Source: Anaerolineales bacterium (GTDB taxonomy: Bacteria > Chloroflexota > Anaerolineae > 4572-78 > NAK82). Taken from it: a stretch of 37,550 bases of DNA. Shown here one piece after another: positions 21,355-37,528 of the stretch. The notes below the pieces were generated by a model. It was not told the origin of the DNA. It did no database searches and saw nothing but the letters and a program-made list of their open reading frames with translations. The position numbers and the translations under genes were made by a program. Where the stretch lies: contig JAHELX010000004.1 of assembly GCA_024643945.1 (NCBI GenBank), forward strand, positions 1 through 37,550. Reading direction: 5' to 3'. How positions within the stretch are numbered: position 1 is the first letter of the stretch; each line of letters opens with the position of its first letter.

Positions 21355-21421
21355 GCACTCTCTAAGGGGCCTACCTAAGCAAAGTGATCCATATAGCTAA
21401 TCGGGGCGTGCGTTGGGGGCT

Positions 21422-21796: not shown

Positions 21797-21870
21797 AGCA
21801 TGTCCTGAATCAGTCAGCAGCGATAAAACGCCGATAGGAGTGAGTCTTCTCGTTATCCAGTGGCCAGCCC

Positions 21871-22656
21871 ATGAGCTCGATCGTTACAGACCAAGGCATT
21901 GTACATTATGAAACTTACGGACAGGGCCAACCTGTAATTCTGCTTCACGGGTGGTTAGGCTCTTGGGGCTACTGGCTCGACACGATGGAGGCCCTGGGAC
22001 ACAACTATCGCTTATATGCCCTCGACTTTTGGGGATTTGGCGACTCTGGAAAACGCCGTGATCGGTACTTGATTGGCGATTTCGTTGACCTGGTTGATCA
22101 ATTTATGGATCGGCTGGGGATCGTGCAAGCTCCAATTGTCGGACACTCAATGGGAGGTACGGTAGCTCTTAGTTTGGCCTTGAGCCGGCCTAAGCGTGTG
22201 TGCAAAGTGGTCGTGGTGGGTTCACCTGTGGTAGGCGATTCGTTGAACATCTTTTTGCGTCTGGCTGGCCGTCCCTGGATCGCCTACGTGGTCTGGCAAA
22301 TGCCAATGGCTCTACGATGGGGAATCAAGCTCTTCTCACCCAAAATCACCCGAGAATGGCGCAAATGGTACAATATGCAAATCCAAGATCTATCGAGGAC
22401 GACGTTGGAAGCCTTTTTTTCCAGCATTGGCTCATTACGCCGCGTTGACCTGCGGCCGAAGTTGAGTGTGCTGCATACCCCGGTAATGAGTGTTAATGGC
22501 GTCGGTGACAATGTGGTCAATCCCAATCAGGCAGCTATCATCAAGCGTTATGTCTCGGGAGCCCGCATCGAGATGATGGCCCATTCGCGCCATTTTCCTA
22601 TGCTCGATGAGCCAGAGGTATTTAATGAACGGCTTCACTCTTTTTTAAGAAATTGA
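21871..22656 (+). CDS. Alpha/beta hydrolase (copy A of hydrolase/V4R module)
   Basis: This is a 261-residue soluble hydrolase with no signal peptide. The oxyanion region is LLHGWLGSW (24-32), the nucleophile elbow is GHSMGG with Ser93, the acid is probably Asp213 in NGVGDNVV, and the histidine is His241 in SRHFPML. It is the same length as the hydrolase at 35836 and strongly similar throughout the first 100 residues and around the histidine, so the two are paralogues. Both are followed by a V4R-domain gene. The substrate is unknown: an ester, lactone or thioester of a hydrophobic compound would fit the V4R partner, but that is inference. Confidence 0.88.
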   Translation: MSSIVTDQGIVHYETYGQGQPVILLHGWLGSWGYWLDTMEALGHNYRLYALDFWGFGDSGKRRDRYLIGDFVDLVDQFMDRLGIVQAPIVGHSMGGTVALSLALSRPKRVCKVVVVGSPVVGDSLNIFLRLAGRPWIAYVVWQMPMALRWGIKLFSPKITREWRKWYNMQIQDLSRTTLEAFFSSIGSLRRVDLRPKLSVLHTPVMSVNGVGDNVVNPNQAAIIKRYVSGARIEMMAHSRHFPMLDEPEVFNERLHSFLRN

Positions 22657-22706
22657 CAAATGAACTCTTTCGTCGTCGCATCTCCATAAAAACCGGACCT
22701 TGCGCT

Positions 22707-23348
22707 ATGCCCACCGAGAACTTGTCAGAGACAAGCGGGTTTTACTATCCTAATAATATGGGACGCATTGTGCTCCAGGCACTGGAAGAGGTGATGGGGC
22801 GTAATGGCGTTAACGCTTTGCTGACACTTGCCAAGCTTCGGCATCTGGTCAACAACTTTCCGCCCAACAACTTGGAAAAAGGCTTTCGCTTCGAAGATTT
22901 CGGGGCTATTACGCAGGCCTTGGACGATATGTATGGCCCTCGAGGCGGGCGCGGGTTGGGCACCCGAGCTGGGCGGGCTGCTTTTAAGTACGCACTCAGA
23001 GAGTTCGGTGCTGTGCTCGGCATTGCGGACCTGGCTTTCCGACTTTTACCCTTAGGTATGAAAATGAAAGTCGGCATCAATACCTTTGCCGAAACCTTTA
23101 ACAAGTTCTCGGATCAGGTAGTCCGGCTGGAGGAAGACGAAGAGCACTTCATTTGGGTCATCGAGCGTTGCCCGGTGTGCTGGGGCCGCACGACAGAGGC
23201 GCCATGCTGTCACGCGGCTGTCGGGATTTTACAGGAGGGAGCACATTGGCTGAGCGGCGGCAAGAGTTTTCGTGTAGAAGAAGTGGAGTGCATTGCTGCT
23301 GGTGCTGAAACCTGTAAAATATTAGTGGACAAACGACCGCTCGATTGA
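22707..23348 (+). CDS. V4R (4-vinyl reductase) domain protein, copy A
   Basis: This 213-residue protein has an N-terminal helical part with a PPNN motif (NNFPPNNLEKGF) and a YGPRGGRGL turn. A C-terminal V4R-type domain follows, with cysteines in CPVC, in APCCH and in the final VECIAAGAETCKI strand-turn-strand. V4R domains occur in BchJ and in the ligand-sensing part of XylR/DmpR-type regulators, and they bind hydrophobic small molecules or metal. The Cys pattern suggests a metal site. ATG 22707 aligns with the start of the paralogue at 36911. A TTG at 22653 would overlap the hydrolase stop. It is probably co-transcribed with the hydrolase. Confidence 0.75.
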   Translation: MPTENLSETSGFYYPNNMGRIVLQALEEVMGRNGVNALLTLAKLRHLVNNFPPNNLEKGFRFEDFGAITQALDDMYGPRGGRGLGTRAGRAAFKYALREFGAVLGIADLAFRLLPLGMKMKVGINTFAETFNKFSDQVVRLEEDEEHFIWVIERCPVCWGRTTEAPCCHAAVGILQEGAHWLSGGKSFRVEEVECIAAGAETCKILVDKRPLD

Positions 23349-23404
23349 TCGCTTGCCCTTTATACTCAATAACTTGTTTCGTTGTTACTGAATCTGACCA
23401 ACAG

Positions 23405-24712
23405 ATGATTAAAATTATTATTCGTGACGAGACGCTCATTCCACCGTTTAATGAGCCTGCCCGTTCTCTACGTGTCCTTAACAAACCACTCTGGTTATTC
23501 CAACGGGACGTGTTGAGCGCTTATTGTTCTCAAGAGATTGAAGTAACAGGAATAACCCATTTGACACAGATCCCAGAAAAGTTAGGTCAGGAGCTTCCGA
23601 CAAACCAGGAACTTCTCGTTTACCGAGACAACTTATTCTTTGATGAGCACTTAGTGGCCGCGTTTCTTGAGAGGGCCAAGGCAAAGGCAAGCTGGGAGAA
23701 TAAGGCCAGCCAAGTTGCCTTCTCGCTCAACGACGCGGCCATCGTCAATCATGCTTTGTGTCTGCAAGAGGGTATACGGCGGGAGGGAGATGTTTACGTA
23801 GCTGATTTGTGGTACTTTCCTCACGGCTTTACCGATCAGGTGGAGCCGGTGGTTGTAGATACATTGTCGCGCGAAATTGGCTACTACCACGTCCCAACCT
23901 ATATGGCTGACCGATCTGGTGACCTGGCTTATCAGATACCCCTGCGAGCTCTGCTTTCTATTGAAAACTGGGCCCATATCTTTATAGCGAATACGCCCTT
24001 TGGCATCGTCGCCCACGGGGCACGTATTGAAGCATCGCTGGAGCAGCCACTGCGTCTATTGCATATCTTGTTCCGATCCCTGGTCGAACGTAAGCAGTTT
24101 TTGTCCAGTTCAGCTATGGTCCAGGTAGGAAGGAATGCGCACATTGACCCCACTGCTATCATCCAGGGGCCGGCAATTATTGGCGACAATGTGGTGATCG
24201 AAGCCGGCGCCGTTGTCACCAATAGCGTCATCGGCAGTAATGTCACGATTGGGCAGGGGGCCCAGGTAATGGCCAGCGTCGTCAGTGATGGCTGCTATTT
24301 GCCTTTTCGTGCGGCTGTGTTTATGACGACTTTGATGGAAAATGCCATGGTCGCTCAAAATGCCTGTTTGCAATTGTGCGTCATCGGGCGTGATACCTTC
24401 ATCGGAGCTGGTAATACGTTCACCGATTTCAATTTGCTGGGAAAACCCATCCGCACTCTGCACAAGGGTCAATTACAGAAGGTGGGCCTACCAGTTCTGG
24501 GAGCCTGTGTAGGTCACAACTGTCGTATTGGGTCCGGCCACGTCGTTTACCCAGCGCGGATAATCGAATCGGACGTGGTGCTTTTTGCCCGACCCGATCG
24601 ACAGGTCATTACCAAAAACGTTCTGTTTGAGGAGAGTGACCACCATGGCTGGCCGGATGAATTGCATCAATCAAAGTATCCGCATTGTATGGGGGAATTA
24701 ATGCGTCACTGA
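23405..24712 (+). CDS. GlmU-like protein with left-handed beta-helix domain
   Basis: This is a 435-residue protein. The first 235 residues resemble the divergent N-terminal nucleotidyltransferase-like domain of GlmU-like proteins (LIPPFNEPARSLRVLNKPLWLF, then LLVYRDNLFFDEHLVAAFL). They lack the GxGTRMxP loop, so transferase activity there is doubtful. From residue about 239 there are hexapeptide repeats of a left-handed beta-helix (IDPTAIIQGPAIIGDNVVI, then GNTFTDFNLLGKP, and GHNCRIGSGHVVYP). Such domains act as acyl- or acetyltransferases or as nucleotide-sugar enzymes. Its stop overlaps the ATG of the reductase gene by one base (TGATG), so the two products are probably made in equal amounts and may work in the same pathway. 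Confidence 0.7.
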   Translation: MIKIIIRDETLIPPFNEPARSLRVLNKPLWLFQRDVLSAYCSQEIEVTGITHLTQIPEKLGQELPTNQELLVYRDNLFFDEHLVAAFLERAKAKASWENKASQVAFSLNDAAIVNHALCLQEGIRREGDVYVADLWYFPHGFTDQVEPVVVDTLSREIGYYHVPTYMADRSGDLAYQIPLRALLSIENWAHIFIANTPFGIVAHGARIEASLEQPLRLLHILFRSLVERKQFLSSSAMVQVGRNAHIDPTAIIQGPAIIGDNVVIEAGAVVTNSVIGSNVTIGQGAQVMASVVSDGCYLPFRAAVFMTTLMENAMVAQNACLQLCVIGRDTFIGAGNTFTDFNLLGKPIRTLHKGQLQKVGLPVLGACVGHNCRIGSGHVVYPARIIESDVVLFARPDRQVITKNVLFEESDHHGWPDELHQSKYPHCMGELMRH

Positions 24713-25788
24713 TGGACAATTTTGCCTTCGTCATCCACCCGGTAGATCCCAAAAAGGACGTTTCACGTAAGTTTCCCTTGCTGGGTACTTATCTGTCGGT
24801 AGGAGCCATCAACTTCTTTTCGCGTTACTTTCCACCGGTCTACGTCTCGCACATCACTGGCGTGCGCTCACAGGCGACTGGCAAGGAGATTGAGGGGTGG
24901 TTCGTGGCTTGCCCTCTCACACCGCAGCGGTCCCTGGAGTTGCCGCCGTCGGTGGTTTACAAGAAAGTCATCCAGACCGGCCGATTGGCGCAGAGACTGG
25001 GAGCGCGCTTGCTGGGGTTGGGTGGCTTCACCTCGGTGGTGGGCGATGGTGGCGTGACTATCGCCAAGGGGCTGAACATCCCTGTCACCACTGGTGACAG
25101 CTACACCGTGGCCACAGCTGTGCAGGCAACCTGGTTGGCGGCTGAGCGCATGGACATTAATCTGGCGAAGGCAACAGCCGCCGTGGTGGGGGCCAGCGGT
25201 GCCATCGGGCGAGTGTGCGCCCAGCTTATCGGGCAAAGGGTGCCACACTTGCTGCTCATCGGTCGGCGACCGGCACCGCTGGCCGAGGTAGCTCACCTTA
25301 TCCAGGGCCAAAACGGCACCGAGGTCAGGTTCAGTACCGAGATGCATGATTTGCGCCACGCCGACATAGTGCTCACTGTAACTAGTGCTATCCATACCGT
25401 TATCGAGCCGGAACATCTCAAACGTGGTGCCGTCGTCTGTGACGTGGCTCGTCCCCGCGATGTGTCTCGGCGGGTGGTGGAGGAACGGGACGACGTACTG
25501 GTGATTGATGGTGGCATGGTCGCTGTGCCAGGGCCGGTTGATTTTGGTTTCGACTTTGGCTTCCCGCCTGGCATGGCTTTCGCCTGCATGGCGGAGACAA
25601 TGATCCTTGCGCTGGAAGGCCGCTACGAGAGCTATACCTTGGGCAAAGACATCGACTTGACACAAGTGGAAGGTATCGCTAAACTGGCTTCTAAGCATGG
25701 CTTCAGCGTTGGGGGCTTTCGCTGCTTCGAGCAACCGGTTACCGATGAACAGATTGAACGAATTAAGAGAATTGTGGGTAAAAGGTAG
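24712..25788 (+). CDS. Acyl-ACP reductase (AAR)-like NAD(P)-dependent oxidoreductase
   Basis: This is a 358-residue protein. The order of motifs matches cyanobacterial acyl-ACP reductases: an N-terminal FVIHP segment followed by KDVSRK, a LGGFTS motif (103-108), a TTGDS/YT segment (126-132), a Rossmann GASGAIG (160-166), an IDGG segment (266-269), and MAFACMAETMILALEG with Cys292. The cysteine lies at the place of the catalytic Cys of AAR (FACFAEA). AAR converts acyl-ACP or acyl-CoA to aldehyde. Automated tools often call such proteins shikimate or saccharopine dehydrogenase. There is no aldehyde-deformylating oxygenase here, so an alkane pathway is not supported; a fatty aldehyde or related product is inferred. 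The stop-start overlap ties it to the beta-helix gene. Confidence 0.65.
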   Translation: MDNFAFVIHPVDPKKDVSRKFPLLGTYLSVGAINFFSRYFPPVYVSHITGVRSQATGKEIEGWFVACPLTPQRSLELPPSVVYKKVIQTGRLAQRLGARLLGLGGFTSVVGDGGVTIAKGLNIPVTTGDSYTVATAVQATWLAAERMDINLAKATAAVVGASGAIGRVCAQLIGQRVPHLLLIGRRPAPLAEVAHLIQGQNGTEVRFSTEMHDLRHADIVLTVTSAIHTVIEPEHLKRGAVVCDVARPRDVSRRVVEERDDVLVIDGGMVAVPGPVDFGFDFGFPPGMAFACMAETMILALEGRYESYTLGKDIDLTQVEGIAKLASKHGFSVGGFRCFEQPVTDEQIERIKRIVGKR

Positions 25789-25819
25789 CGCCGAAAGTCG
25801 GTAGATTGCTCGCAGCTAG

Positions 25820-25929: not shown

Positions 25930-25935
25930 AGAACG

Positions 25936-26829
25936 ATGAGCAAAGGTCGAATTTTGGTGGTGGAAGACGACCTGGACATCTCTCAAATGCTGCGCCTTTA
26001 CTTCGATTCCCAGGGATACGAAGTGCTGACGGTAATGCGTGGTAATGATGCATTAGAGATGTGTCGCAAAAAGCAGCCAAACGTGGTAGTACTCGACATC
26101 ATGTTACCCGATATGGATGGTTATGATGTCTGCCGAGAGCTACGCGGCAATTTGCGTACCAGCCACATTCCCATCATCTTCCTCACGCAAAAAGACGAGC
26201 GCAGCGACAAGATAGCCGGCCTGGAGTTGGGCGCTGACGACTATATTACCAAACCCTTCGACATCGAGGAACTGAAATTGCGTGTGCAGGGCGCCATGCG
26301 CCGTGCGGAAGCAACCAGCCTGACCGATCCCACCACCGGATTACCCAGCGCCAAGCTCATCGAAGAACAGCTCAAGCAATTGGTAACCCGCGACGATTGG
26401 GCTATGCTTTACGTCGTCCTCAATCATATCGATGCCTTTACTGAGACGCAGGATATTATGGCTCGGGATGACTTCCTGCGCTTTGTGGCGATGAGCCTCA
26501 ATGATGCGGTAGAGGCCTATGGTACCTCCAACGACTTCATTGGGCACACCAGCGGCAATGACTTTATGATCATCACCATGCCCGCTGTGGTTGATCCCAT
26601 CAAAGCAGAGTTTTCACAACGCTTCGAGCAGACTGTGCCTACCTTTTACGATTTCCTCACCCGTGAGCAAGGCTACGTGGTCTACATCGACCGGGATGGC
26701 AATGAGCAAAAATCACCGTTGATGAGCCTTTGCATTGGCGTGTTGACTGCCGCTGATGGCCCCTTCCCTGACATTCGCATGCTGGCGGCCGAAGCGCGCC
26801 GCCGGGCGACTCGTGCTTGCGGAGGGTAA
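25936..26829 (+). CDS. Response regulator: receiver domain plus degenerate GGDEF domain
   Basis: This is a 297-residue protein. The receiver domain (residues 1-125) is complete: acidic pair in VVEDDLD, phospho-acceptor Asp54 in VVLDIMLPDMDGYD, and TKPF with the conserved lysine. The following 160 residues keep the start of a GGDEF domain (LTDPTTGLPSAKLIEEQL). The signature is SGNDF instead of GGDEF, and the substrate Asp region is altered (VLNHIDAF). Diguanylate cyclase activity is therefore unlikely; it may bind a nucleotide or a partner instead. It lies just upstream of the giant hybrid kinase and in the same direction, so it may receive phosphate from it. Confidence 0.85.
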   Translation: MSKGRILVVEDDLDISQMLRLYFDSQGYEVLTVMRGNDALEMCRKKQPNVVVLDIMLPDMDGYDVCRELRGNLRTSHIPIIFLTQKDERSDKIAGLELGADDYITKPFDIEELKLRVQGAMRRAEATSLTDPTTGLPSAKLIEEQLKQLVTRDDWAMLYVVLNHIDAFTETQDIMARDDFLRFVAMSLNDAVEAYGTSNDFIGHTSGNDFMIITMPAVVDPIKAEFSQRFEQTVPTFYDFLTREQGYVVYIDRDGNEQKSPLMSLCIGVLTAADGPFPDIRMLAAEARRRATRACGG

Positions 26830-26834
26830 CAGGG

Positions 26835-27027: not shown

Positions 27028-27049
27028 TGAAGCGGACAGGATGTGAGGG

Positions 27050-30000
27050 ATGATTGGTGCGGTGGTTCGGAGATTAGGCCGCCTGGGGGTAAGGCTCTGG
27101 GGACCCTTCCTGTTGCTGGCGCTGGTGTCGCTGGTAGTGGGTAGCGTGGCGTTGTATACCACCTATACCGATCAGCGTCGCTACGTCGTCAGCCTGCAAG
27201 AAGATGTTGCCGCACGCACTAGCCTGTATATGTCCGATTATTTGCATGGCATTGAAAACAGTTTGATTGCCGGCACTCGAACCTTGAGCTTTGTCGGGGA
27301 TGACCCCACCGCTCAGCAGCATTACCTCGAGTCATTGCTTGAGGCCAATTCTGCCTTCTTTGAACTGGCCCTTATTGACATGGATGGTCGGGAAACGGCC
27401 AAGGCTGTACGGGATCGACCAGCAGCCGACCAGGACTTGTTGGACCAGTCTAACACCGAGAAATTCCTCATTGCCAGTCAGGGACAATACTACGTCAGTT
27501 CCGTCTATGTCTCTGAGTTCGGCGTGCCTTTTTATACATTGGCTGTTCCCGTCTACAATGATGCCAGCCGTGTCGTGGGGGTCTTGGCCGCCGAAGTAAA
27601 CGCCGACGAAATGTGGAACGTCGTCGACCGCATTCTGGTCGGCCAAGCCGGCTACGTTTACCTGGTGGACGGTATGGGCAACCTCATCGCCTACCGAGAC
27701 CTGGAACTGGTAATGCAGCGGCCCAACGTATCACAGCAGGTCGTCGGTGTGCAGCGCTTCCTGGCAGGGGATTCTCAGGTGATGGAATATCAGGGACTCG
27801 ACGGTCAGCCCGTTATCGGTGCCCGCCGGCGGGTCCCTGGCACCGATTGGGGCGTGATTGCTGAATTGCCAGCCCGCGAAGCGTATCACACTGCTAATCT
27901 CTTTGCCCTCACTTCGGTCCTGGTCTTTTTGGTAGTTGTGGCTGTAGCATTGGCGATGGGCTGGTTCATTACCAGGCGTGTGGTGCAGCCTTTGGTGGCG
28001 TTGTGTGAGGGGGCGGCTATCTTGGGCCGCGGCAACCTGGATTACCGTATCCAGGTAGATGCGCGTGGCGAAATCGGGGAACTGGCGGCCGAGTTCAATG
28101 CTATGGCTGCCAGCCTTCAGCAGTCGCAGGCCGAAACCCAAGCTCGGCTGCGTGAGGTCTCATCACTGGTCGAGGCTGGGCGAGCCATCACTTCGCTGGA
28201 CCTTCAATGTGTGCTTAACACGCTAGCCAAAGAGGCAGCGCGGGCGGTGGCAGCGCAGGCGTGCGTTATCTATATCGTCAATGAGCTTTCCCTAACGCTG
28301 GAACCGAGGTCCACGTGGAGTCAGCCAGGCTTCGAATGTGACCCTCCACCCCAGCCAGTGGGAGAAGGTGTCGCCGGTTGGATTGCGAAGCACGCCCAAA
28401 TCCTGTGCGTCGAAGATGTGCACGCTGATCCCCGCTTTGCCGATCAGGACGTTGTCTTTCCACACCGTAGCCTGATGGGATTGCCCATGATGGTAAGTGG
28501 TAGGCTAGTCGGCGTATTACTGGTGAGCGGCAAGCTTAATGGAGGGCATAGCTTTATCTCTAGCGACGAGCGCTTATTGCAGGCCTTTGCTGACCAAGCA
28601 GCTGTCATCATCGAAAACGCCGAACTGTATGGCGAAGAACGCCGTCGCTCGCGTGAATTGGCACTGGTCAACCGCATCAGCCGTACCATCACTGCCAGTC
28701 TTGACTTAGAAACCACCCTGGATGCCATTCTGGCCTCCGTGCGTGACCTGCTGCCTTATGTGGCTGCCGAAATCTGTTTGTGGGACCCGGAAAAGAAGCG
28801 ACTCTTCCCTGGGGGCTGGGGGGGCGATCCGGACTACCGTCACCTGGATGCTGGCGTGTACGCCATGGACGAAGGCTACACTGGCTGGATCGCACGTCAT
28901 CAGAAACCGCTTTTCATCCCCGACATCAGTGCCTTTGACGAAGTCAGGCCAAAGCTGGCCTCGGCTCAAGTGCTCGCGGGCAGCTATATTGGTGTGCCGC
29001 TGATGGTTGGGGATACCTTTGTGGGCACTCTGGAATTAATAAGCCATGAGGCGAGCCCTTACAAGCCGCAAGACCTGGACACATTGCAGACGGTAGCTAA
29101 TCAAGCGGCCGTGGCCATCGAAAACGCCCGGCTTTACCATCAGGAGCAACGGCGGCTGCGCGAAGCAGAAGGTATGCTGCGGGTCACCGGAGTGCTCTCT
29201 TCGGGCCGATCTCTGAGACAAGCCCTGGAGGAAGCAGCTCATCAGATTAGTGCTTTGTTCGATGCGTACCGAGTTGCCTTTATACTCTTCAACAATGACC
29301 GAACAGCGGTGCAATCAGTTGTTGGCTTGCTTCCTGATCAGACTGACCGGGTATACGAAAATTACCGCTATCTGACCCACATCTTCGAGGCTGACCAACT
29401 GGCTACGCAGCATTCGCCATTGATTGAGCAGTGCCTATTATGCATAGAAGATTGGGATGAACTCGACGATATCCAGGGTCAGCAAAGCGACCTCAGCGTA
29501 ATGCGTCACATATTTCCGGATGCCCGTTCGCTCTTTCTGCTGCCGCTGGCGACATCCGAGCGCCTCAGCGGTGCGATGGCCCTTCAGTGGCGTGAACCGC
29601 GTCGCTTCGCCGAGGACGAGATTAACCTGGCGATCGCGATTACCCAACAGGCGGCAGTTGCCGTTGAGAAAACACGACTGCTTGAAGAGGCCCGTCACGC
29701 CGCCGACGTGCAGGCAGGGGTAGCTCGCATTGCTCACATCGCTGTCTCTACCCTGGATCTGGATGAATTGATCAGCCGTACGATGGCTGAGGCAATAAGG
29801 TTGGTGGACGCCGAAAAAGGCGCATTGCTGCTGTGGGACAAACATCAAGAGGAGTTGATCGCTCACCCGGCGGGAGCCGTTGGCGCGGCACCGCAAGAAG
29901 TGGCCGACTTTCGTATCAAAGCTGGCGACCCGGCTTTTGAAGTGAGCGTTCTCAGCCAGGGACGGCCTTTCATCTCTGATAACGCGTCCCAGGACAGGCG

Positions 30001-33000
30001 TATTCTCGAAGCCTATCGTCCGTTCGTCCGACGCTTCGACGTCAAGACATTGCTGGCTGTACCTCTGACACTGCAAGAGCAGAGTATTGGCGAACTGTAT
30101 GCCGTCAACAAGGCAACCCCCTTTACCCAGGAAGACGTCCGCTTTATGACGGCGATTGCGGCTTACATGGCGGCGGCGATTGAAAACGCACGACTGTTTG
30201 CCGCTACCGAGCGCAACATGCGCGAAGTTTCTATCCTCTATCAGACTACCTCGGCGCTTTCACCCAAGTTGTCGGTAAATGAGTTGTTGAATGATCTGGA
30301 GCAGCGAATGTCGCTCGCCTTGGAAGCTGACGAATGTGCCATATCAGAGTGGGACGAAGCCAGCGGTATATTGCGAACAAGAGAGAGGAGGCCTTACCCG
30401 GTTGCCGACTTCCCTGCCACAGCCGAGGTATTGCGCAGCCAGCAGCCAAAGACCGTGGAGGTCTCTGACCCTCAAGCCGACCCGGCCGAAGTGACACTGC
30501 TGCAAGAGCTGGGTTATCGGTCGCTGCTCATGCTGCCGCTGGTAGTACGCGATGCTGTGACTGGTCTCGTTGAGATTTACGATGTCAAGGATCGGCACTT
30601 CACGCATGAAGAGATACGGTTGGCGCTGGCCCTCACCGGCCAGGCGGCCATCGCGCTTCAAAATGCGCAACTCTTTAGCCTCACCGACGAGCGGTTGCAC
30701 AAACGAATTAAAGAACTTTCCGGACTGCAACGGGTCAGCCAAGAGCTAAACAGCACCCTCGATCAAGATCGCATTCTTCAATTGGTGCTCGAAGAAGCGG
30801 TACGCGCTACCGGCGCTGATTTTGGCAACGTGAGCCTGCACGACCGAAGTTCCGGTCGGCTCTTGGCTTATGTCAGCTTTGGCTTCGATGACGAAAAGAA
30901 GACACGGTTGAAAGAAGGCGAGTTCTACGTCGCAACCGGCGTGATGGGACGAGCGCTGCAAACAGGGGAACCGGTTTTGGTACCTGACGTTTCCCTGGAT
31001 CCCGACTACATGATGGGTTCCGATGAGTCCCGCTCGGAGGTGGCGGTGCCCATCTTTTATGCTGGGGATGTGGCCGGTGTCATCAATTTGGAAAGCCGAC
31101 AATTAAACGCCTTTAGTGAGGAGCAACTGCAATATTTGCAGGCGCTGGCCAACCAGGCGGCCGTCGCCACCCGCAATGCTCTGGCCTATGAAGAGCAGCG
31201 ACAGCAGCGCGAGTTGCTGCGGCAACGAGCAGAGCAACTGGCGCGTCTGTCGGAGATTAGCCGGGCCTTCCGGTCCGACCAGCCCCTTGAGTCGGTGTTG
31301 GAGGATATTGCCTACGCCATCCAGGAGACGCTGGGCTTCAACGTAGTTCTTGTCAGCGTGATGTCAGGCGATTCCCCTGTGTTGCATCGGGTGGCAGGGG
31401 CCGGCATTCCGTTGGTCGAGCTAGAACGCCTCAAGGCCACCCCCCAATCACCAGAAGTGGTAATGGATCTGATGCAGGACCGCTTCCGATTAGGACTCCA
31501 ATCGTATTACATCCCGCATACTTATAAGGAGCTTTGGGAAGACCGCCTCGACGCGCACTACACCCCGCCAGAGTATTTGCCGGAGTCGGATGAGCAGTGT
31601 TGGGATGTCGACGACTTGTGTTTTTCGCCGCTCTACAACTCGGAACTGCAACTCATTGGGGTGATTTCTGTAGACAATCCTCGAGATGGGCGAGTGCCTA
31701 CCCGGCAAGTGATGGAGACGTTGGAGTTGTTCGCCAACCAGGTGGCGGCCGCCATCGAAAATGCCTACCTGTTCCACTCTGAGCAAGAACGCCGCCGGCT
31801 GGCCGATACCCTTCGCGAAGTGGCTGCCGTCGTCAACTCTACCTTGAGTGTGGATCAGGTGATTGAGGCGATCCTCGATCAGTTACGGCACGTTGTCCCT
31901 TACGATAGTGCCACCGTGCAGGTGCTAAGCGGAGATCATTTGATCATTACCGGCGGACGGGGTTGGGATAACATAGAGGATGTGCTTGGACTGGCTTTTC
32001 CTGTGGCAGGCGACAATCCCAACGCTGTTGTGGTGCGTACCCGGGCTCCCTACATCGTTCCCGATACCCAGGCAGCCCACGCCGCCTTCCGCGAACCGCC
32101 CCACAAGCACATTCGCTCGTGGTTGGGCATTCCATTGCTCTTTGGCGATAATTTGCTGGGCATGATCGCTCTGGATAGCGTGGATCTGGATCATTATACC
32201 CAGGAGCACGCCCAATTGGCTCTCACCTTTGCCAACCAGGTAGCTGTGGCACTGCAAAATGCCCAACTTTTTGAGCAGGCGCGCCATTATGCTGACCAAC
32301 TACGGGTTATCAACGAAGTAGGAGTAGAGATCACTTCAATCCTGAACGTAGATCAACTGATCGCCCGCATCAGCCAGTCAGTGGAGGATAACTTCGGCTA
32401 TCATGCCAATATTGGCCTGATCGAGGATGATTATTTGGTCTTGCGCAGTCGTGGCGACCATGGGAATGGAGGGGGCGGAAGGGACGCCTACAGAGAGACG
32501 TATCGCCTAAGAGTGGGCGAAGAGGGTATCACGGGATGGGTTGCTGCATCGGGGCAGACGATGGTTGTGCCTGACATAACCCAAGATCCGCGCTACCTCG
32601 CAGGCCCTCAGCACGAGAGAGGTCCCGACAGGGGAGTAACACGCTCAGAAGTTGCCATCCCGCTGAAAGTGCAAGATCGCATCATTGGCGTGTTCGACGT
32701 GCAGAGCGATGTCACCGAAGGCTTTACTGAAAACGATGTGTTGGTGCTACAGTCTCTGGCCAACCAGGTGGCTGTAGCTATCACCAATGCACAATTGTTC
32801 GAACACGTCAGCCAGTTGGGGCAAGAACTTGAGCAGCGGGTGCAAGAACGCACTGAAGCATTGGCCAAAACGTTGGAAGATCTGACCCTGGAGCGCGACC
32901 GAGTAGAGACGCTCTATCGCATCACTCGTGAGCTTTCGGCCAGTCTTGACCTGGATCGGGTGTTGGCTGAGGCACTAAGTCTGATCAACCGGGCTGTAGG

Positions 33001-35332
33001 TGTTTCGCACGGGTCCATCATGTTGCTGGACTCCGGCACTGGCAATCTGATCTATCGGGCTGCACTGGGACGCTCCAAGGGATTGCCCCGGGGTGGCATA
33101 CTGACCCGCTACCGCAGGGGCGTGGGCTTGGCGGGGTGGGTGCTCGAAACTCGTGAGTCAGTCATCGTCCCGGATGTGACTCAAGACCCGCGTTGGGTCC
33201 CAGATGAGAAAAAGCCCACCCCAGAACGTAAGTCAGCAATAGCGGTGCCTCTAACCGCTGGCGAAGATGTGCTGGGTGTGTTGCTCCTCTTCCATCCAGA
33301 GGTTGGCTATTTTACGCCTGATCATCTCAAACTGGTCAGTGCAGCAGCTATTCAAGTGGCAACGGCCATCAACAATGCGGAGCTATATCAGCTCATCACC
33401 GACCAGGCCGAACGGCTTGGTCTGATGTTGCGCACCCAAAAGGCCGAGGCGGCCAAGCACCAAGCCATAGTGGAGGGCATCGCTGACGGCGTACTCGTGC
33501 TCGACACCAACCGCTATGTGGTGCTGATGAACCCAGCGGCAGCCCGTATCCTGGGGGTGAAAGACGCCAGTGCTGTCGAAGGACAGCACATACGTGAGAT
33601 CCTGAAGCTGGCCGGGTCGCCCATGGACCAGGTCTTGGCGCGGCAACTCTATGATAAACTGATGACTGGTATAGAGCACTTCAGTACTTTGGAGGCCTCG
33701 CAGGAGGGTCCGGTGCCTGGTCTTGGCTTTCGGCTGGAAGCAGAAGAGAAAGTGATTGTGGTCAGCCTATCGCCAGTCTCGCTGGGCAGTGGCGAGTTGC
33801 CCAGTCTGGTCACCGTCTTAAGGGATATTAGCCGCGAGGCCGAGGTCGAACGCCTGAAGAATGAGTTCATTTCCACCGTATCTCACGAGTTACGCACGCC
33901 GATGACTTCCATCAAAGGCTACACTGACTTGCTGGTCAGCGAAAAGGTCGGGACTCTCAGCGAACAGCAGCGCCGCTTTGTGCACGTCATTAAGAGCAAT
34001 GCCGACCGCTTGACTGCTCTGGTTAATGATATCCTCGACATTTCACGCATCGAGACCGGCCGCATTAAGCTCAAGGTCACATCCATAAACCTGGCCAGGT
34101 TGATCGATGATATGGCCGATAACTTCCGGGGGCGGATGGTCGAAAAATCGCTGGAACTGATACTCGACTTGCCGTCAAAATTACCTCTGATACGTGGCGA
34201 TGAGGTCCGGTTAGTCCAAATCCTGGAGAATCTTGCCAGCAATGCCTGGAAATATACCCCGGAAGGGGGAAAGGTGACTGTCAAGGCCAGGGTTGTGGAT
34301 GGCTTTGTGCAGGTAGATGTGGTGGATACCGGTATTGGCATTGCCCAAAGAGACCTGGCGCACATCTTCGACCGCTTCTATCGTACTGAACAGGCAGAGG
34401 TTCGAGCCGTGGACGGCACTGGATTGGGCCTGGCCATTGTAAAAATGTTCGTGGAGTTGCTGGGAGGTAAAATCTGGGTCCAAAGCGAAGTCAACCGGGG
34501 CAGCACTTTTAGCTTTACCCTGCCGTTGGCCGTCGAGACCCCTGTAGGATCATCTAATGGGGATACAACCGCGCCCAAGATTCTGGTCGTTGACGACGAT
34601 GAGCATATCTTGCAACTGTTGCGCCATCACTTAGAGACGGAAGGATACCAGGTGTTGACAGCACAGCGCGGTGAGGATGTATTCAAACTGGCTTACAGCG
34701 AACAGCCTGCCCTTATTACTCTCGACATCATCCTGGCAGACATGGATGGATTTGAGGTGTTGGAAAAACTCAAAAAAGACCCTGTGACGGCTGGTATCCC
34801 AGTCATTATCGTCTCCGTCGTCCCCGATGCTGAAACACGTGGGCTGGCTCTGGGAGCAGCCGGCTACATTGGTAAACCTTTCGAGGAAGTTCAAGTGCTC
34901 AATCAGGTCCGGAAGGTGCTGGCCTCATTGGGCATCACGGAGAATGGACGGCTCAACCATGTGCTGGTGGTAGACGACGACCGTCATATCGTGGATTGGC
35001 TGAAGGAAGCACTGACCAACAGCGGATTCGTCGTGCAGGGAGCTTACAACGGGCACGAGGCACTGGCCTTGGCGCGTGAAGACTCTCCCGACCTGATCTT
35101 GCTGGATCTTAAGATGCCTGATATGGACGGCTACGAAGTCATTCGCAATCTGCGTCGTGAACAAGCGACTCGCAGCATTCCTGTGATTGTCATCACTGGC
35201 AGTTCTTTCGATGACGACTATGACCACGTCGAGATTTTGGGGATGGGGGTTGAGCATATGCTTACCAAACCGTTTAGCGTCGAAACATTGGTGGAGGAGA
35301 TTAAGCGAGTGGGGCATGGGACAGCCGGCTGA
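27050..35332 (+). CDS. Giant hybrid histidine kinase: dCache-HAMP-10xGAF-PAS-HisKA-HATPase-REC-REC
   Basis: This 2760-residue membrane sensor has TM1 at about 16-36, an extracellular dCache-like domain at about 45-280, TM2 at about 284-308 and a HAMP domain at about 310-365. Ten GAF domains follow, each ending with a helix like NQAAVAIENARLY, at about residues 525, 692, 877, 1047, 1207, 1377, 1574, 1739, 1914 and 2111. A coiled coil of about 50 residues precedes the tenth GAF. A PAS domain lies at about 2130-2260. HisKA has the phospho-acceptor His2279 (SHELRTP), and the HATPase has NLASNAWKYTP, DTGIGI and GTGLGLAIV. The two receiver domains have Asp2559 and Asp2686. It is probably the central sensor of this locus. 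GAF ligands cannot be read from sequence. Confidence 0.93.
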   Translation: MIGAVVRRLGRLGVRLWGPFLLLALVSLVVGSVALYTTYTDQRRYVVSLQEDVAARTSLYMSDYLHGIENSLIAGTRTLSFVGDDPTAQQHYLESLLEANSAFFELALIDMDGRETAKAVRDRPAADQDLLDQSNTEKFLIASQGQYYVSSVYVSEFGVPFYTLAVPVYNDASRVVGVLAAEVNADEMWNVVDRILVGQAGYVYLVDGMGNLIAYRDLELVMQRPNVSQQVVGVQRFLAGDSQVMEYQGLDGQPVIGARRRVPGTDWGVIAELPAREAYHTANLFALTSVLVFLVVVAVALAMGWFITRRVVQPLVALCEGAAILGRGNLDYRIQVDARGEIGELAAEFNAMAASLQQSQAETQARLREVSSLVEAGRAITSLDLQCVLNTLAKEAARAVAAQACVIYIVNELSLTLEPRSTWSQPGFECDPPPQPVGEGVAGWIAKHAQILCVEDVHADPRFADQDVVFPHRSLMGLPMMVSGRLVGVLLVSGKLNGGHSFISSDERLLQAFADQAAVIIENAELYGEERRRSRELALVNRISRTITASLDLETTLDAILASVRDLLPYVAAEICLWDPEKKRLFPGGWGGDPDYRHLDAGVYAMDEGYTGWIARHQKPLFIPDISAFDEVRPKLASAQVLAGSYIGVPLMVGDTFVGTLELISHEASPYKPQDLDTLQTVANQAAVAIENARLYHQEQRRLREAEGMLRVTGVLSSGRSLRQALEEAAHQISALFDAYRVAFILFNNDRTAVQSVVGLLPDQTDRVYENYRYLTHIFEADQLATQHSPLIEQCLLCIEDWDELDDIQGQQSDLSVMRHIFPDARSLFLLPLATSERLSGAMALQWREPRRFAEDEINLAIAITQQAAVAVEKTRLLEEARHAADVQAGVARIAHIAVSTLDLDELISRTMAEAIRLVDAEKGALLLWDKHQEELIAHPAGAVGAAPQEVADFRIKAGDPAFEVSVLSQGRPFISDNASQDRRILEAYRPFVRRFDVKTLLAVPLTLQEQSIGELYAVNKATPFTQEDVRFMTAIAAYMAAAIENARLFAATERNMREVSILYQTTSALSPKLSVNELLNDLEQRMSLALEADECAISEWDEASGILRTRERRPYPVADFPATAEVLRSQQPKTVEVSDPQADPAEVTLLQELGYRSLLMLPLVVRDAVTGLVEIYDVKDRHFTHEEIRLALALTGQAAIALQNAQLFSLTDERLHKRIKELSGLQRVSQELNSTLDQDRILQLVLEEAVRATGADFGNVSLHDRSSGRLLAYVSFGFDDEKKTRLKEGEFYVATGVMGRALQTGEPVLVPDVSLDPDYMMGSDESRSEVAVPIFYAGDVAGVINLESRQLNAFSEEQLQYLQALANQAAVATRNALAYEEQRQQRELLRQRAEQLARLSEISRAFRSDQPLESVLEDIAYAIQETLGFNVVLVSVMSGDSPVLHRVAGAGIPLVELERLKATPQSPEVVMDLMQDRFRLGLQSYYIPHTYKELWEDRLDAHYTPPEYLPESDEQCWDVDDLCFSPLYNSELQLIGVISVDNPRDGRVPTRQVMETLELFANQVAAAIENAYLFHSEQERRRLADTLREVAAVVNSTLSVDQVIEAILDQLRHVVPYDSATVQVLSGDHLIITGGRGWDNIEDVLGLAFPVAGDNPNAVVVRTRAPYIVPDTQAAHAAFREPPHKHIRSWLGIPLLFGDNLLGMIALDSVDLDHYTQEHAQLALTFANQVAVALQNAQLFEQARHYADQLRVINEVGVEITSILNVDQLIARISQSVEDNFGYHANIGLIEDDYLVLRSRGDHGNGGGGRDAYRETYRLRVGEEGITGWVAASGQTMVVPDITQDPRYLAGPQHERGPDRGVTRSEVAIPLKVQDRIIGVFDVQSDVTEGFTENDVLVLQSLANQVAVAITNAQLFEHVSQLGQELEQRVQERTEALAKTLEDLTLERDRVETLYRITRELSASLDLDRVLAEALSLINRAVGVSHGSIMLLDSGTGNLIYRAALGRSKGLPRGGILTRYRRGVGLAGWVLETRESVIVPDVTQDPRWVPDEKKPTPERKSAIAVPLTAGEDVLGVLLLFHPEVGYFTPDHLKLVSAAAIQVATAINNAELYQLITDQAERLGLMLRTQKAEAAKHQAIVEGIADGVLVLDTNRYVVLMNPAAARILGVKDASAVEGQHIREILKLAGSPMDQVLARQLYDKLMTGIEHFSTLEASQEGPVPGLGFRLEAEEKVIVVSLSPVSLGSGELPSLVTVLRDISREAEVERLKNEFISTVSHELRTPMTSIKGYTDLLVSEKVGTLSEQQRRFVHVIKSNADRLTALVNDILDISRIETGRIKLKVTSINLARLIDDMADNFRGRMVEKSLELILDLPSKLPLIRGDEVRLVQILENLASNAWKYTPEGGKVTVKARVVDGFVQVDVVDTGIGIAQRDLAHIFDRFYRTEQAEVRAVDGTGLGLAIVKMFVELLGGKIWVQSEVNRGSTFSFTLPLAVETPVGSSNGDTTAPKILVVDDDEHILQLLRHHLETEGYQVLTAQRGEDVFKLAYSEQPALITLDIILADMDGFEVLEKLKKDPVTAGIPVIIVSVVPDAETRGLALGAAGYIGKPFEEVQVLNQVRKVLASLGITENGRLNHVLVVDDDRHIVDWLKEALTNSGFVVQGAYNGHEALALAREDSPDLILLDLKMPDMDGYEVIRNLRREQATRSIPVIVITGSSFDDDYDHVEILGMGVEHMLTKPFSVETLVEEIKRVGHGTAG

Positions 35333-35359
35333 GTGTAATGATATGGTGCTCTATACTTA

Positions 35360-35409
35360 CTGCTCCGTCCCAGTTCACGTTTGAGGCACGTACTGCAACT
35401 ACGGAGCAG
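35360..35409 (+). other. Long hairpin before the single-domain response regulator
   Basis: CTGCTCCGT (35360-35368) pairs perfectly with ACGGAGCAG (35401-35409) over a 32-nt loop. AGGAG at 35411-35415, the ribosome binding site of ATG 35427, begins 2 nt after the stem. Folding could limit translation of the regulator relative to the giant kinase. There is no T-run, so it is not a typical terminator. Confidence 0.4.
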
Positions 35410-35426
35410 CAGGAGTTGCTTAGGCT

Positions 35427-35825
35427 ATGGATGTACCTTTAATTTTGGTCGCCGAAGACGAGCGAGACATCCGTGAATTGATTGTCATCACTCTGCAAAC
35501 TCATGGTCTTACCAATGTGATCGAAGCGCGCAATGGCGAAGAAGCGATTGCTCAGGCGAGGACTCACAAACCAGACCTGATCCTTATGGACGTGCGTATG
35601 CCCAAAATGACCGGTTATGAAGCGTGCAAAGTGCTGAAGGATGATCCCCGCATGAACGGTATTCCCATCGTCTTCCTCTCGGCCAAAGGGCAAGAAACAG
35701 AAATCAAGCTGGGGATAGAGTTGGGCGCAGAGGAATACATTATCAAACCCTTTGCGCCAGATGAGCTATACTATCGGGTGGCCGAGATTCTGAAGGGAGC
35801 CGGTCACCATGTGCCATCGCGCTGA
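35427..35825 (+). CDS. Single-domain response regulator (CheY-like)
   Basis: This 132-residue protein consists of one receiver domain: acidic pair in VAEDERD, phospho-acceptor Asp55 in LILMDVRMPKMTGYE, a switch-type LSAKGQ segment, and IKPF with the conserved lysine. There is no output domain, so it acts by binding a partner or as a phosphate shuttle. It follows the hybrid kinase by 94 bp and precedes the second hydrolase by 10 bp, so it is likely part of the same relay. Its target is unknown. Within this window the roadblock/GTPase module and the degenerate-GGDEF regulator are plausible partners. Confidence 0.9.
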   Translation: MDVPLILVAEDERDIRELIVITLQTHGLTNVIEARNGEEAIAQARTHKPDLILMDVRMPKMTGYEACKVLKDDPRMNGIPIVFLSAKGQETEIKLGIELGAEEYIIKPFAPDELYYRVAEILKGAGHHVPSR

Positions 35826-35835
35826 GTGAGGTGTT

Positions 35836-36621
35836 ATGAGTGCGATTGTCATTGGCGGAGGTTTAATTCATTACGAGGCCTTTGGGCACGGCGAGCCAAT
35901 TCTGTTTATCCATGGCTGGCTTGGCTCGTGGCGCTATTGGATGCGCACGATGGAGGCGCTCGCTTCTGATTACCGCACTTATGCCCTGGACCTTTGGGGG
36001 TTTGGAGATTCTGACAAGTCAAAGGAACGCTATTCGGTGGCCGACTATACCACTTTGATCCACGATTTTATGGACCAATTGGGTATCGCCAAAGCTTCGC
36101 TCGTAGGACATTCTCTGGGGGCTGTCGTGGCCTTACACTTTGCTACCGAATACCCAGCTCTCATCTCCCGCTTGGCTATCGTGAGTCTCCCCTTCACCTC
36201 CGACGCCATCAACGGCCGTCTGCTGGATTTTTCCAGTAATTCAGTCCTGGCCAAGATGTTCTGGTGGCGGCAGATAACTCACAAAGAGGTTCAGCAAGAA
36301 GTCGAAAAGATGGCGACAAACGTCATCGCGCTGAGTGTGCAATCGACCTTTGAGATTGATGCTCGGGCCCTCATCGAGCGTATACGTCAGCCGACTCTGG
36401 TCATTTATGGCGAAAAAGACGGCGTGATAGATCCGGAACCGAGTCGCATTTTGAATGGCGAGCGTCATAGCCTGCGACCGATCGGCTTGTCCGAGTCCAG
36501 GCACTTCCCGATGCTAGAAGAAGCGAACAAGTTCAATCGCTTGCTCAAAGATTTCCTGGAAGCAGGTGACGACCTATCTATTTTGGAGCTGAAAGAAGAG
36601 TGGAAGCGCCGCACCCGATGA
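35836..36621 (+). CDS. Alpha/beta hydrolase (copy B of hydrolase/V4R module)
   Basis: This 261-residue hydrolase is paralogous to the one at 21871 and has the same length. The oxyanion region FIHGWLGSW, the nucleophile Ser93 in GHSLGA, the acid Asp195 in YGEKDGVIDP, and His223 in SRHFPML form the expected triad. The final Gly of the elbow (GHSMGG in copy A) is Ala here. The cap region between residues 120 and 180 differs most from copy A, so substrate preference may differ. It is 10 bp after the response regulator, so a shared message is likely. The V4R gene that follows has its own promoter, unlike copy A. Confidence 0.88.
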   Translation: MSAIVIGGGLIHYEAFGHGEPILFIHGWLGSWRYWMRTMEALASDYRTYALDLWGFGDSDKSKERYSVADYTTLIHDFMDQLGIAKASLVGHSLGAVVALHFATEYPALISRLAIVSLPFTSDAINGRLLDFSSNSVLAKMFWWRQITHKEVQQEVEKMATNVIALSVQSTFEIDARALIERIRQPTLVIYGEKDGVIDPEPSRILNGERHSLRPIGLSESRHFPMLEEANKFNRLLKDFLEAGDDLSILELKEEWKRRTR

Positions 36622-36724
36622 ATGTGGCCTCACTCCCTCCCCGGCTTTCCGGTGTCCCCGATGAGACATTGCCTGCCCAGTTGAAATCCCGCGCTATAGT
36701 GCCCTTCCTCCTCTTTTGTTCACA

Positions 36725-36753
36725 TTCACAACATTCCTGTTTTGTGGTATAAT
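36725..36753 (+). promoter_or_regulatory. Sigma70-type promoter with extended -10 for V4R copy B
   Basis: TTCACA at 36725-36730, a 17-bp spacer, and a perfect TATAAT at 36748-36753 preceded by TGG (extended -10). Transcription would start near 36760, giving a leader of about 150 nt before ATG 36911. Confidence 0.78.
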
Positions 36754-36800
36754 GTTGCAATAATCCAATAGTACTATAAAAAATCTCTTCGTGGGTGGGG

Positions 36801-36906
36801 TCAAAGCTTGCTTTGAATCAAGTCCCGACATAGGTGAAATATGCCACCTAATCGCGATCAAACTTGAGCAAGCTTGTGCCTCCGCATAATTCTCAAAAGG
36901 AGGTGA
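36801..36906 (+). ncRNA. Structured 5' leader of V4R copy B with alternative pairings
   Basis: A perfect stem, TCAAAG-CTTG-CTTTGA, lies at 36801-36816, and a second, TAGGTG/CACCTA, at 36831-36836 and 36845-36850. The stretch AAGCTTGCT (36804-36812) is also perfectly complementary to AGCAAGCTT (36867-36875), so the first stem and this long-range pairing exclude each other. The leader ends in a very strong ribosome binding site, AGGAGGTGA (36898-36906), 4 bp before the ATG. This is the layout of a cis-acting RNA switch, but it matches no riboswitch class I know. Confidence 0.4.
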
Positions 36907-36910
36907 GTCG

Positions 36911-37528
36911 ATGCCGGAAGACCGACCGATGCCCAATGCAACCCTGCGTGTCCTGTTTGAGGCCATTGAGGAGGTGATGGGAGCAAATGGGGCCAAGGCT
37001 GTTTTGAACTCAGGTGGTTTAGACCGTTTTATCGGCAATTACCCGCCCAACAATACCAAGTTGGAAGCTACCTTTGCCGATTACGGCGCGGCCGAGCAGG
37101 CAGTGGAGGATTTTTATGGGCCACGCGGTGCACGGGCCATGTTGACGCGTATCGGCCGGGCAACGTTTCAATATACACTCAGGGAGCAACCGGCTATTCT
37201 GGGATTGGCTGGGCTGGCGCTCAAAGCTCTGCCCATGGGCACGCGAATTAAGTTGGTGCTGGACAATATCACCAAAGCGGCCAACAAGGATGTGAATCAG
37301 CCGGCACATATACGGGAGGAGCCGGATGCCTATTACTTCGTCGTAGAGGAATGTCCCTGTCGCTGGCGCCCCAAGCACGATAAGCCGGCATGTTTCGTTA
37401 CCGTTGGAGTTTTGCAGGAGGCGATGGCCTGGGCCACTGGCAAGAATTTCAAGGTTGAAGAAGTCGCCTGTATCTCAAAGGGCGCTTTGGCGTGCGTGTA
37501 CCGGATTCCTAAACAACCTATTGAATGA
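36911..37528 (+). CDS. V4R (4-vinyl reductase) domain protein, copy B
   Basis: This 205-residue protein is paralogous to the V4R protein at 22707. The same landmarks appear in the same order: the EEVMGANGAKAVL helix, YPPNN, FYGPRGARAM, a hydrophobic helix near LGLAGLALKALPMG, then the V4R part with CPCRW, DKPACF and VACISKGALACVYRI. The cysteine at the second position of copy A's APCCH motif is absent here, so the metal or ligand site may differ. It is expressed from its own promoter with a structured leader, which suggests independent control of the sensor protein. The ligand is unknown. Confidence 0.78.
   Translation: MPEDRPMPNATLRVLFEAIEEVMGANGAKAVLNSGGLDRFIGNYPPNNTKLEATFADYGAAEQAVEDFYGPRGARAMLTRIGRATFQYTLREQPAILGLAGLALKALPMGTRIKLVLDNITKAANKDVNQPAHIREEPDAYYFVVEECPCRWRPKHDKPACFVTVGVLQEAMAWATGKNFKVEEVACISKGALACVYRIPKQPIE

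What the first reader, a model, noticed from the sequence alone, without database searches (positions are those of the whole stretch)
21871..37528. Two copies of an alpha/beta hydrolase plus V4R module flank a giant sensor kinase
Hydrolase A (21871) and hydrolase B (35836) are both 261 residues with the same triad layout, and each is followed by a V4R-domain protein (22707 and 36911) that is also paralogous to the other. Between the pairs lie a beta-helix protein, an AAR-like reductase, a response regulator and a 2760-residue kinase. Repeated pairing of an enzyme with a small ligand-binding protein suggests a working unit in which the hydrolase makes or destroys the V4R ligand. I know of no described system with this composition.
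Basis: partly seen in the sequence, partly recalled or inferred. Interest (0 to 1): 0.72.

Follow-up and report, generated by a model that had tools for sequence, protein, structure and literature searches.

The report
Chloroflexota GTPase–hydrolase–V4R signalling locus
A conserved row of about a dozen bacterial genes joins a Ras-like switch protein, a relative of a eukaryotic vesicle-tethering subunit, a giant sensor kinase, fat-handling enzymes and an enzyme look-alike that has often lost its active site, and looks like an undescribed way for these bacteria to respond to a greasy molecule.

Summary
It starts at 19817 with a DUF4388/PATAN protein, a Ras-like GTPase and a Roadblock-like protein, then hydrolase A, V4R-A, a GlmU-like hexapeptide protein, an acyl-thioester reductase (AAR), a receiver/degenerate-GGDEF regulator (rG), the 2760-aa kinase, a receiver, hydrolase B and V4R-B. 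This order recurs, with some parts optional, on about forty Chloroflexota contigs. Of 201 Chloroflexota genomes, 38 have hydrolase A, V4R, GTPase or AAR and 31 have all four, about half with the parts dispersed. The hydrolases are not equivalent: A keeps Ser-Asp-His, while B, a separate clade with its own tail, has Gly, Ala or Asp for Ser in 29 of 30 survey loci, though Ser in the window. V4R follows hydrolase B only in the window and two relatives; rG follows V4R in 63 of 66 readable cases. Best reading: a lipid-responsive GTPase/two-component module in which A and AAR set an acyl-type ligand, V4R binds it and hydrolase B is receptor-like. No description was found in the held library. Ligand, direction and output are inferred.

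The parts
19817..20650 (+). DUF4388 (PATAN) protein, 277 aa, first gene of the conserved unit
   Evidence: Pfam PF14332 100.8 bits; beside the GTPase in module loci; PATAN next to MglA-type GTPases is described in PMC4316618 (passages; that PATAN and DUF4388 are the same domain is recalled)
20768..21304 (+). Ras-like small GTPase, 178 aa; P-loop GPFxxGKT, G3 GTPGQ, NKQD
   Evidence: Pfam Arf/Ras/ATP_bind_1; highest mean column identity (82%, 13 sequences) of the families that I aligned with align_proteins; best PDB sequence matches an Arf GTPase (8oul) and MglA (3t12)
21422..21796 (+). Roadblock/LC7-like protein (ORF from TTG 21413, ATG at 21422), possible GTPase regulator; lineage-specific
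   Evidence: PF03259 E 0.0025, 17.9 bits, below cut-off 23; strong phmmer matches only in window, L001, L002, weaker ones in L156 and L158; divergent copies could be missed
21871..22656 (+). Hydrolase A, catalytically complete alpha/beta hydrolase (S93, D213, H241)
   Evidence: Ser 41 of 41 loci, Asp and His 40 of 41 with one gap; S-D-H 21 of 21 further loci
22707..23348 (+). V4R-A, 213 aa from ATG (open frame from 22653); predicted Zn site C168/E192/C195/C203, ligand-binding fold
   Evidence: Pfam V4R; AF2 model pLDDT 93.5; matches H-NOX, TRAPPC3/Bet3 and MopR folds; Zn ligand columns
23405..24712 (+). GlmU-like protein: nucleotidyltransferase-like N-terminal part plus hexapeptide left-handed beta-helix
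   Evidence: PF00132; Foldseek ST0452, mannose-1-phosphate guanylyltransferases (model pLDDT 74.7); alignment
24712..25788 (+). Acyl-thioester reductase (AAR/PigE-N/TamH-C like); start codon overlaps the stop of the previous gene by one base
   Evidence: NCBIfam PigE 203 bits and AcACP_reductase 106 bits, both under cut-off; PDB 4ppm, 6jzq; putative catalytic Cys (C301 in the ORF from 24685) in all 29 module AARs aligned and 12 of 12
25936..26829 (+). Response regulator with degenerate GGDEF-like domain (rG), the most constant neighbour of V4R
   Evidence: PF00072, PF00990; receiver D54 61 of 61, canonical GG[DE]EF 0 of 61
27050..35332 (+). 2760-aa hybrid histidine kinase: dCache between two hydrophobic segments, HAMP, GAF array (9 GAF stretches), PAS, HisKA, HATPase, two receivers
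   Evidence: relatives with other sensor parts
35427..35825 (+). Single-domain response regulator (rS)
   Evidence: PF00072
35836..36621 (+). Hydrolase B; Ser nucleophile present here but Gly/Ala/Asp in many relatives; conserved C-terminal K-x2-W-x-R-R tail
36911..37528 (+). V4R-B, separate clade, read directly after hydrolase B only in the window, G001 and G008

Best explanation
The block 19817-37528 is one inherited signalling unit of Chloroflexota in which a Ras-like GTPase and a large hybrid histidine kinase are tied to sensing of a hydrophobic, acyl-type molecule. Shown by sequence or model: a GTPase with its motifs, a V4R protein of the H-NOX/TRAPPC3/MopR fold with the Zn-ligand residues of the phenol sensors, an acyl-thioester reductase with the catalytic Cys, an active-type hydrolase A, a kinase with two separate receivers, and a hydrolase B whose family has often lost its nucleophile while keeping Asp, His and a family-specific tail. 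Inferred: (1) AAR turns an acyl thioester into an aldehyde or alcohol and hydrolase A cleaves or forms an acyl ester, together setting the level of a ligand; (2) V4R binds that ligand; (3) the V4R state is read by the GTPase and by the receiver/GGDEF-like regulator; (4) hydrolase B binds the same or a related ligand without turnover and, through its basic tail, acts on the receiver or kinase beside it, as receptor-type hydrolases do; (5) the hexapeptide protein is a scaffold or a second enzyme. The output is not known.
For: Order conserved over about forty Chloroflexota contigs with largely changing flanks. Co-occurrence in 201 genomes: AAR 34, hydrolase A 33, V4R 35, GTPase 34; all four in 31, any in 38. 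In 17 genomes the parts are scattered and 16 of these still have all four (G158 lacks AAR and GTPase at my cut-offs); in the three read there, V4R-hexapeptide-rG-kinase-hydrolase B stay together. Hydrolase A S-D-H kept; hydrolase B nucleophile S 5, G 4, A 3 of 12 loci, S 1, G 24, A 1, D 4 of 30, A 62, S 58 of 120 database proteins, Asp and His in 120 of 120, tail in 118 of 120; nine changes on a 70-row tree. A and B are split by one branch, 100/100. V4R followed by rG in 63 of 66 readable cases. Zn-ligand columns C168 35, E192 32, C195 38, C203 37 of 39 match DmpR Cys151, Glu172, Cys177, Cys185 (PMC7264223 passages; column match through MopR). AAR kin: PigE and TamH are described as thioester reductases (PMC8341465, PMC9594044 passages); an AAR paralogue overlaps a wax-ester-synthase gene in two genomes.
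Confidence: 0.5

Rival explanations
1. One reading: two copies of a self-standing hydrolase plus V4R unit, in each of which the hydrolase makes or destroys the ligand of its V4R partner.
For: hydrolase A directly before V4R in 41 of 84 V4R genes; hydrolase B before V4R-B in the window, G001 and G008; distances correlate.
Against: V4R after hydrolase B absent in 43 loci with at least 800 bp read (some loci share a genome); hydrolase B often without Ser nucleophile; V4R often without hydrolase beside it (33 of 84 with no module gene directly upstream, 5 with the GTPase instead); hydrolase A is closer to the hexapeptide protein than to V4R.
Confidence: 0.15
2. A lipid biosynthesis operon (aldehyde, alcohol, wax or ester lipid) with attached regulators: AAR, hydrolase A and the hexapeptide protein make a product, and GTPase and kinase only regulate it.
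For: AAR and hydrolase A keep their catalytic residues and the hexapeptide protein has many invariant polar residues; an AAR paralogue overlaps a wax-ester-synthase gene in G206 and G102.
Against: Aldehyde deformylating oxygenase (PF11266) in 0 of 34 carrier genomes and WS/DGAT (PF03007) over cut-off in 3 of 34 (none of the 14 control genomes rang for this family, so there is no positive control), so neither known end enzyme goes with the module; most of the coding length is signalling; AAR is missing in several modules.
Confidence: 0.2
3. A polarity or motility switch of the MglA/MglB kind, in which V4R and hydrolases are incidental passengers.
For: PATAN protein next to an MglA-type GTPase is known (PMC4316618 passages); Roadblock-like gene in the window; MglA is among the best PDB sequence matches.
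Against: Roadblock gene not detected in most loci; hydrolase A, hexapeptide protein and V4R are retained with the GTPase.
Confidence: 0.1
4. V4R here is a BchJ-type tetrapyrrole carrier tied to bacteriochlorophyll.
For: TIGR02019 BchJ is the only NCBIfam match of V4R-A and one of two of V4R-B; ten scattered-type genomes carry a photosynthetic reaction centre.
Against: BchJ scores 19.5 and 26.9 bits against a cut-off of 74.3; Photo_RC found in 10 of 34 carrier genomes and in none with the compact operon; no conserved His in 39 V4R sequences.
Confidence: 0.03

Closest known systems
Conservons / actinobacterial G protein systems (CvnA-D; PMC13343842 abstract, PMC4316618 passages)
   Same: One operon joins a Ras-like GTPase, a Roadblock protein and a histidine kinase; an accessory protein can modulate the kinase.
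   Different: Different phylum; DUF4388 protein instead of the CvnC unknown-domain protein; adds V4R, two hydrolases, hexapeptide protein, AAR and two receivers; Roadblock rarely detected.
MglA/MglB GTPase systems with PATAN proteins (PMC4316618 passages)
   Same: DUF4388/PATAN directly beside an MglA-like GTPase, Roadblock-like gene in the window.
   Different: The word V4R does not occur in that paper's held main text, and no hydrolase or AAR was mentioned in the passages read.
TRAPP subunit Bet3/TRAPPC3 and Asgard TRAPPC3 (PMC2253512 part 1 of 2 read, PMC10933270 passages)
   Different: About 9-13% sequence identity; no longin partner seen among the module proteins scanned; exchange activity untested.
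V4R phenol sensors PoxR/MopR/DmpR (PMC7264223 passages)
   Different: Stand-alone protein, not fused to an AAA+ ATPase; extra C155-x2-C158 pair (38 and 33 of 39); pockets not compared.
Cyanobacterial AAR, PigE N-domain, TamH C-domain (PMC9594044, PMC8341465 passages)
   Same: Thioester reductase with catalytic Cys and GxxGxxG motif.
   Different: Stand-alone in the operon; no aldehyde deformylating oxygenase in 34 carrier genomes.
Receptor-type alpha/beta hydrolases RsbQ, D14, KAI2 (PMC3548789 passages; search listing; RsbQ-RsbP partnership recalled)
   Same: Hydrolase fold used for signalling.
   Different: Those keep the Ser-His-Asp triad; many hydrolase-B relatives lack the Ser; none was among the PDB matches at E 1e-20.

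Membership tests
Conservon (AGPS) | small Ras-like GTPase | tested here: met
Conservon (AGPS) | MglB-type Roadblock protein | tested here: inconclusive
   window ORF below Pfam cut-off (17.9 vs 23 bits); strong homologues only in L001 and L002
Conservon (AGPS) | CvnC unknown-domain protein in the operon | tested here: not met
   no such Pfam match among the 12 module proteins scanned; that CvnC carries Pfam DUF742 is recalled
Conservon (AGPS) | histidine kinase in the operon | tested here: met
MglA group GTPase | PATAN/DUF4388 neighbour and MglB coupling | tested here: inconclusive
   DUF4388 neighbour met; Roadblock-like gene beside it in the window clade only; no GTPase tree against the published groups was made
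V4R domain | Pfam PF02830 over its cut-off | tested here: met
   32.2 and 35.7 bits against 31
V4R domain | Zn ligands of the PoxR/MopR/DmpR type | tested here: met
   columns C168, E192, C195, C203 in 35, 32, 38, 37 of 39
H-NOX | conserved proximal His for heme | tested here: not met
   no column with a conserved His in 39 sequences; the highest are 21 and 19 of 39; role of the His recalled
BchJ | NCBIfam equivalog cut-off | tested here: not met
   19.5 and 26.9 against 74.3 bits
Long-chain acyl-ACP reductase (TIGR04058) | equivalog cut-off | tested here: not met
   106.4 against 449.7 bits
Long-chain acyl-ACP reductase (TIGR04058) | catalytic Cys and GxxGxxG | tested here: met
   C301 and G169/G172/G175 conserved in 29 sequences; Cys aligned with PigE Cys296
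TRAPP/Bet3 GEF | fold | tested here: met
TRAPP/Bet3 GEF | nucleotide exchange on a small GTPase | not testable with these tools
   needs biochemistry
Ser hydrolase (hydrolase A) | Ser-Asp-His triad conserved | tested here: met
Ser hydrolase (hydrolase B) | Ser-Asp-His triad conserved | tested here: not met
   Ser in 5 of 12, 1 of 30 and 58 of 120; met in the window's own copy

The most novel reading that the evidence does not exclude
A bacterial counterpart of TRAPP: a V4R (Bet3-like) protein, loaded with an acyl-type ligand that neighbouring enzymes produce or remove, regulates nucleotide exchange or localisation of a co-encoded Ras-like GTPase, with a dead hydrolase as a second ligand receptor feeding a giant kinase. 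V4R also stands directly behind the GTPase without hydrolase A between them in five loci (four of these contigs end soon after) and, as a B-type V4R in a genome where neither hydrolase was found at my cut-offs, in G096 (L153).
Probability: 0.2. Interest if true: 0.88.

Novelty: new variant of a known kind. Interest (0 to 1): 0.62.

Why it matters
If right, it gives a two-component/small-GTPase system with its own lipid-modifying enzymes and ligand-binding proteins in little-studied Chloroflexota. It also offers a bacterial place where a TRAPPC3-fold protein, a Ras-like GTPase and a Roadblock-like protein are encoded side by side; the Asgard study found that in MK-D1 such genes are generally not in operons together (PMC10933270 passage). 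That makes the question of what V4R proteins did before eukaryotic TRAPP directly testable with purified bacterial proteins. The live/dead hydrolase pair is a natural test of how an enzyme fold turns into a receptor.

Tried and rejected

Caveats on counts: the 80 loci were gathered with a V4R query (80 of 90 confirmed were kept), so they say what accompanies V4R; several loci share a genome (for example L001 and G001). Genes cut by a contig edge or under 150 bits were left out of the residue counts (V4R genes at an edge were kept). The survey E-value cut-offs were mine (AAR 1e-30, hydrolase A 1e-60, V4R 1e-35, GTPase 1e-60, hydrolase B 1e-45), and the tool scored only a limited number of candidates per genome. 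The hydrolase B search also returned hydrolase A genes; of its 33 genomes one (G019) had only that cross-match, so 32 were used, and the 30 loci are the 30 best of these. In one search, 12 further matches that are the hydrolase B genes were left out of the hydrolase A list. Searches covered 34 of the 38 genomes with any part. In one search, 41 loci with both genes entered, 40 in the Mantel test. The tree took every fourth of the 120 database proteins; the trees carry long-branch warnings and midpoint roots.


Full report
OBSERVATION. Hydrolases A and B share 35% identity and the two V4R proteins 42%. The window ends just after V4R-B.

A CONSERVED UNIT. A V4R-profile search of species-representative genomes gave 80 loci, all Chloroflexota by title; where the title names a lower group it is mostly Anaerolineae-type, once Chloroflexia (L041). 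In about half the same order recurs: DUF4388, GTPase, (Roadblock), hydrolase A, V4R, hexapeptide protein, (AAR), receiver/GGDEF-like regulator (rG), large kinase, small receiver (rS), hydrolase B; all 13 loci that reach hydrolase B have kinase and rS before it. Genes outside the unit change from locus to locus, apart from some neighbours shared by close kin. Among 84 V4R genes the module gene directly upstream is hydrolase A in 41, the GTPase in 5, hydrolase B in 1 (the window), none in 33, and 4 lie at a contig edge; rG follows in 63 of 66 cases where enough contig is left, and 18 contigs are too short. So rG is the steadier partner of V4R, and a separate V4R clade lives mostly with rG and no other part of the module.

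PHYLUM SURVEY. In 201 Chloroflexota genomes (same sample each time) AAR was found in 34, hydrolase A in 33, V4R in 35, GTPase in 34; 31 have all four and 38 any. In 15 genomes hydrolase A lies next to the GTPase (14 under 600 bp, G001 at 660 bp), and V4R is within 300 bp of hydrolase A in 13 of these (in G063 and G128 the AAR-to-hydrolase B half lies on another contig, and G112 has a very divergent V4R in the slot). In 17 others the parts are scattered; 16 of them have all four, G158 lacks AAR and GTPase at my cut-offs. In the three scattered genomes that I read across the V4R-hydrolase B stretch (G118, G174, G158), V4R-hexapeptide-rG-kinase-hydrolase B are still one block, and V4R and hydrolase B lie within 16 kb in eight of the 17. 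In G126 DUF4388 and GTPase are adjacent elsewhere, and in the four such genomes where I read the AAR it carries an extra N-terminal part of about 320 residues. Ten of these 17 carry a photosynthetic reaction centre; no compact-operon genome does. Co-occurrence without linkage is the best sign that the parts work together, but the genomes are related and the cut-offs were mine.

TWO UNLIKE HYDROLASES. A and B are split by one branch with 100/100 support (midpoint root, long-branch warning), so the duplication predates the split of these loci. A keeps its nucleophile in 41 of 41 loci (Asp and His 40 of 41, one gap) and Ser-Asp-His in 21 of 21 further ones that include 17 scattered-type genomes. 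B has Ser in 5, Gly in 4, Ala in 3 of 12 loci; Ser 1, Gly 24, Ala 1, Asp 4 of 30 survey loci, with His in 30 and the acid Asp in 27 (3 Asn); and Ala 62, Ser 58 of the 120 best database matches, all with Asp and His (the window's own protein is among the 120, and G001 is in both locus sets). A 70-row tree needs nine changes among the four residues. B also has a conserved tail ending K-x2-W-x-R-R that A lacks. A pocket with Asp and His kept, a freely changing nucleophile and a new tail fits a ligand-binding, partner-docking role better than hydrolysis. The window's own copy has Ser and may still be active.

CHEMISTRY. The AAR-like protein scores below the equivalog cut-offs but keeps the catalytic Cys and GxxGxxG; work on PigE and TamH supports that this domain reduces thioesters to aldehydes (PMC8341465, PMC9594044, passages). 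One survey genome without other module parts, G153, has a TamH-like aminotransferase-AAR fusion (L112), and in two of the three genomes with WS/DGAT over its cut-off an AAR paralogue overlaps that gene. The module has no ADO partner (0 of 34). So an acyl-derived ligand is likely, its identity open.

READING. I take the locus as a lipid-responsive GTPase/two-component unit: AAR and hydrolase A adjust a ligand, V4R binds it and informs GTPase and rG, hydrolase B is a receptor-like partner of the rS/kinase pair. Genes, conservation and predicted folds are shown; the ligand, the direction of signalling and the output are inferred. Closest known are the actinobacterial conservons (GTPase, Roadblock, kinase) and MglA-PATAN loci (PMC4316618 passages, PMC13343842 abstract); the unit does not qualify as a conservon. 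I found no description of it in the held library.

Noticed in passing
window 1-18176: Upstream region looks like cell-envelope/polysaccharide genes: polysaccharide deacetylase, pectate-lyase-like protein, flippase-type polysaccharide export protein, APH-type kinase, LamG protein, CAAX protease-like and DUF2079 membrane proteins.
   Followed up: no
window 18196-19362 (-): 3'-5' exonuclease/HRDC gene (RNase D-like), a flank shared with L001, L033, L036 and L040.
   Followed up: no
L033-L038, L040, L060-L062, L070-L079: A second V4R clade mostly followed directly by an rG-type regulator (24 V4R genes with no module gene upstream), often near ftsH-like and peptidase genes or a beta-glucosidase-like gene (these neighbours named from their sequence by eye).
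   Followed up: partly
L158 3085-4467 (-): DUF4388 and the GTPase fused in one 460-aa protein, with a Roadblock-like gene next to it.
   Followed up: no
L112 2018-4567: TamH-like fusion of a class III aminotransferase with an AAR domain, directly before a kinase gene.
   Followed up: no
L181 2213-5802, L182 4368-7954: Two-domain AAR paralogue overlapping a WS/DGAT gene by 4 bp in reaction-centre genomes: a candidate wax-ester pathway.
   Followed up: partly
L110 4084-4887, L114 4670-5506: In two of four scattered-type genomes read, the AAR gene is followed by another, different alpha/beta hydrolase gene.
   Followed up: no
L154 4189-4761: Very divergent V4R-like gene (51 bits) in the V4R slot between hydrolase A and the hexapeptide gene of G112.
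   Followed up: no
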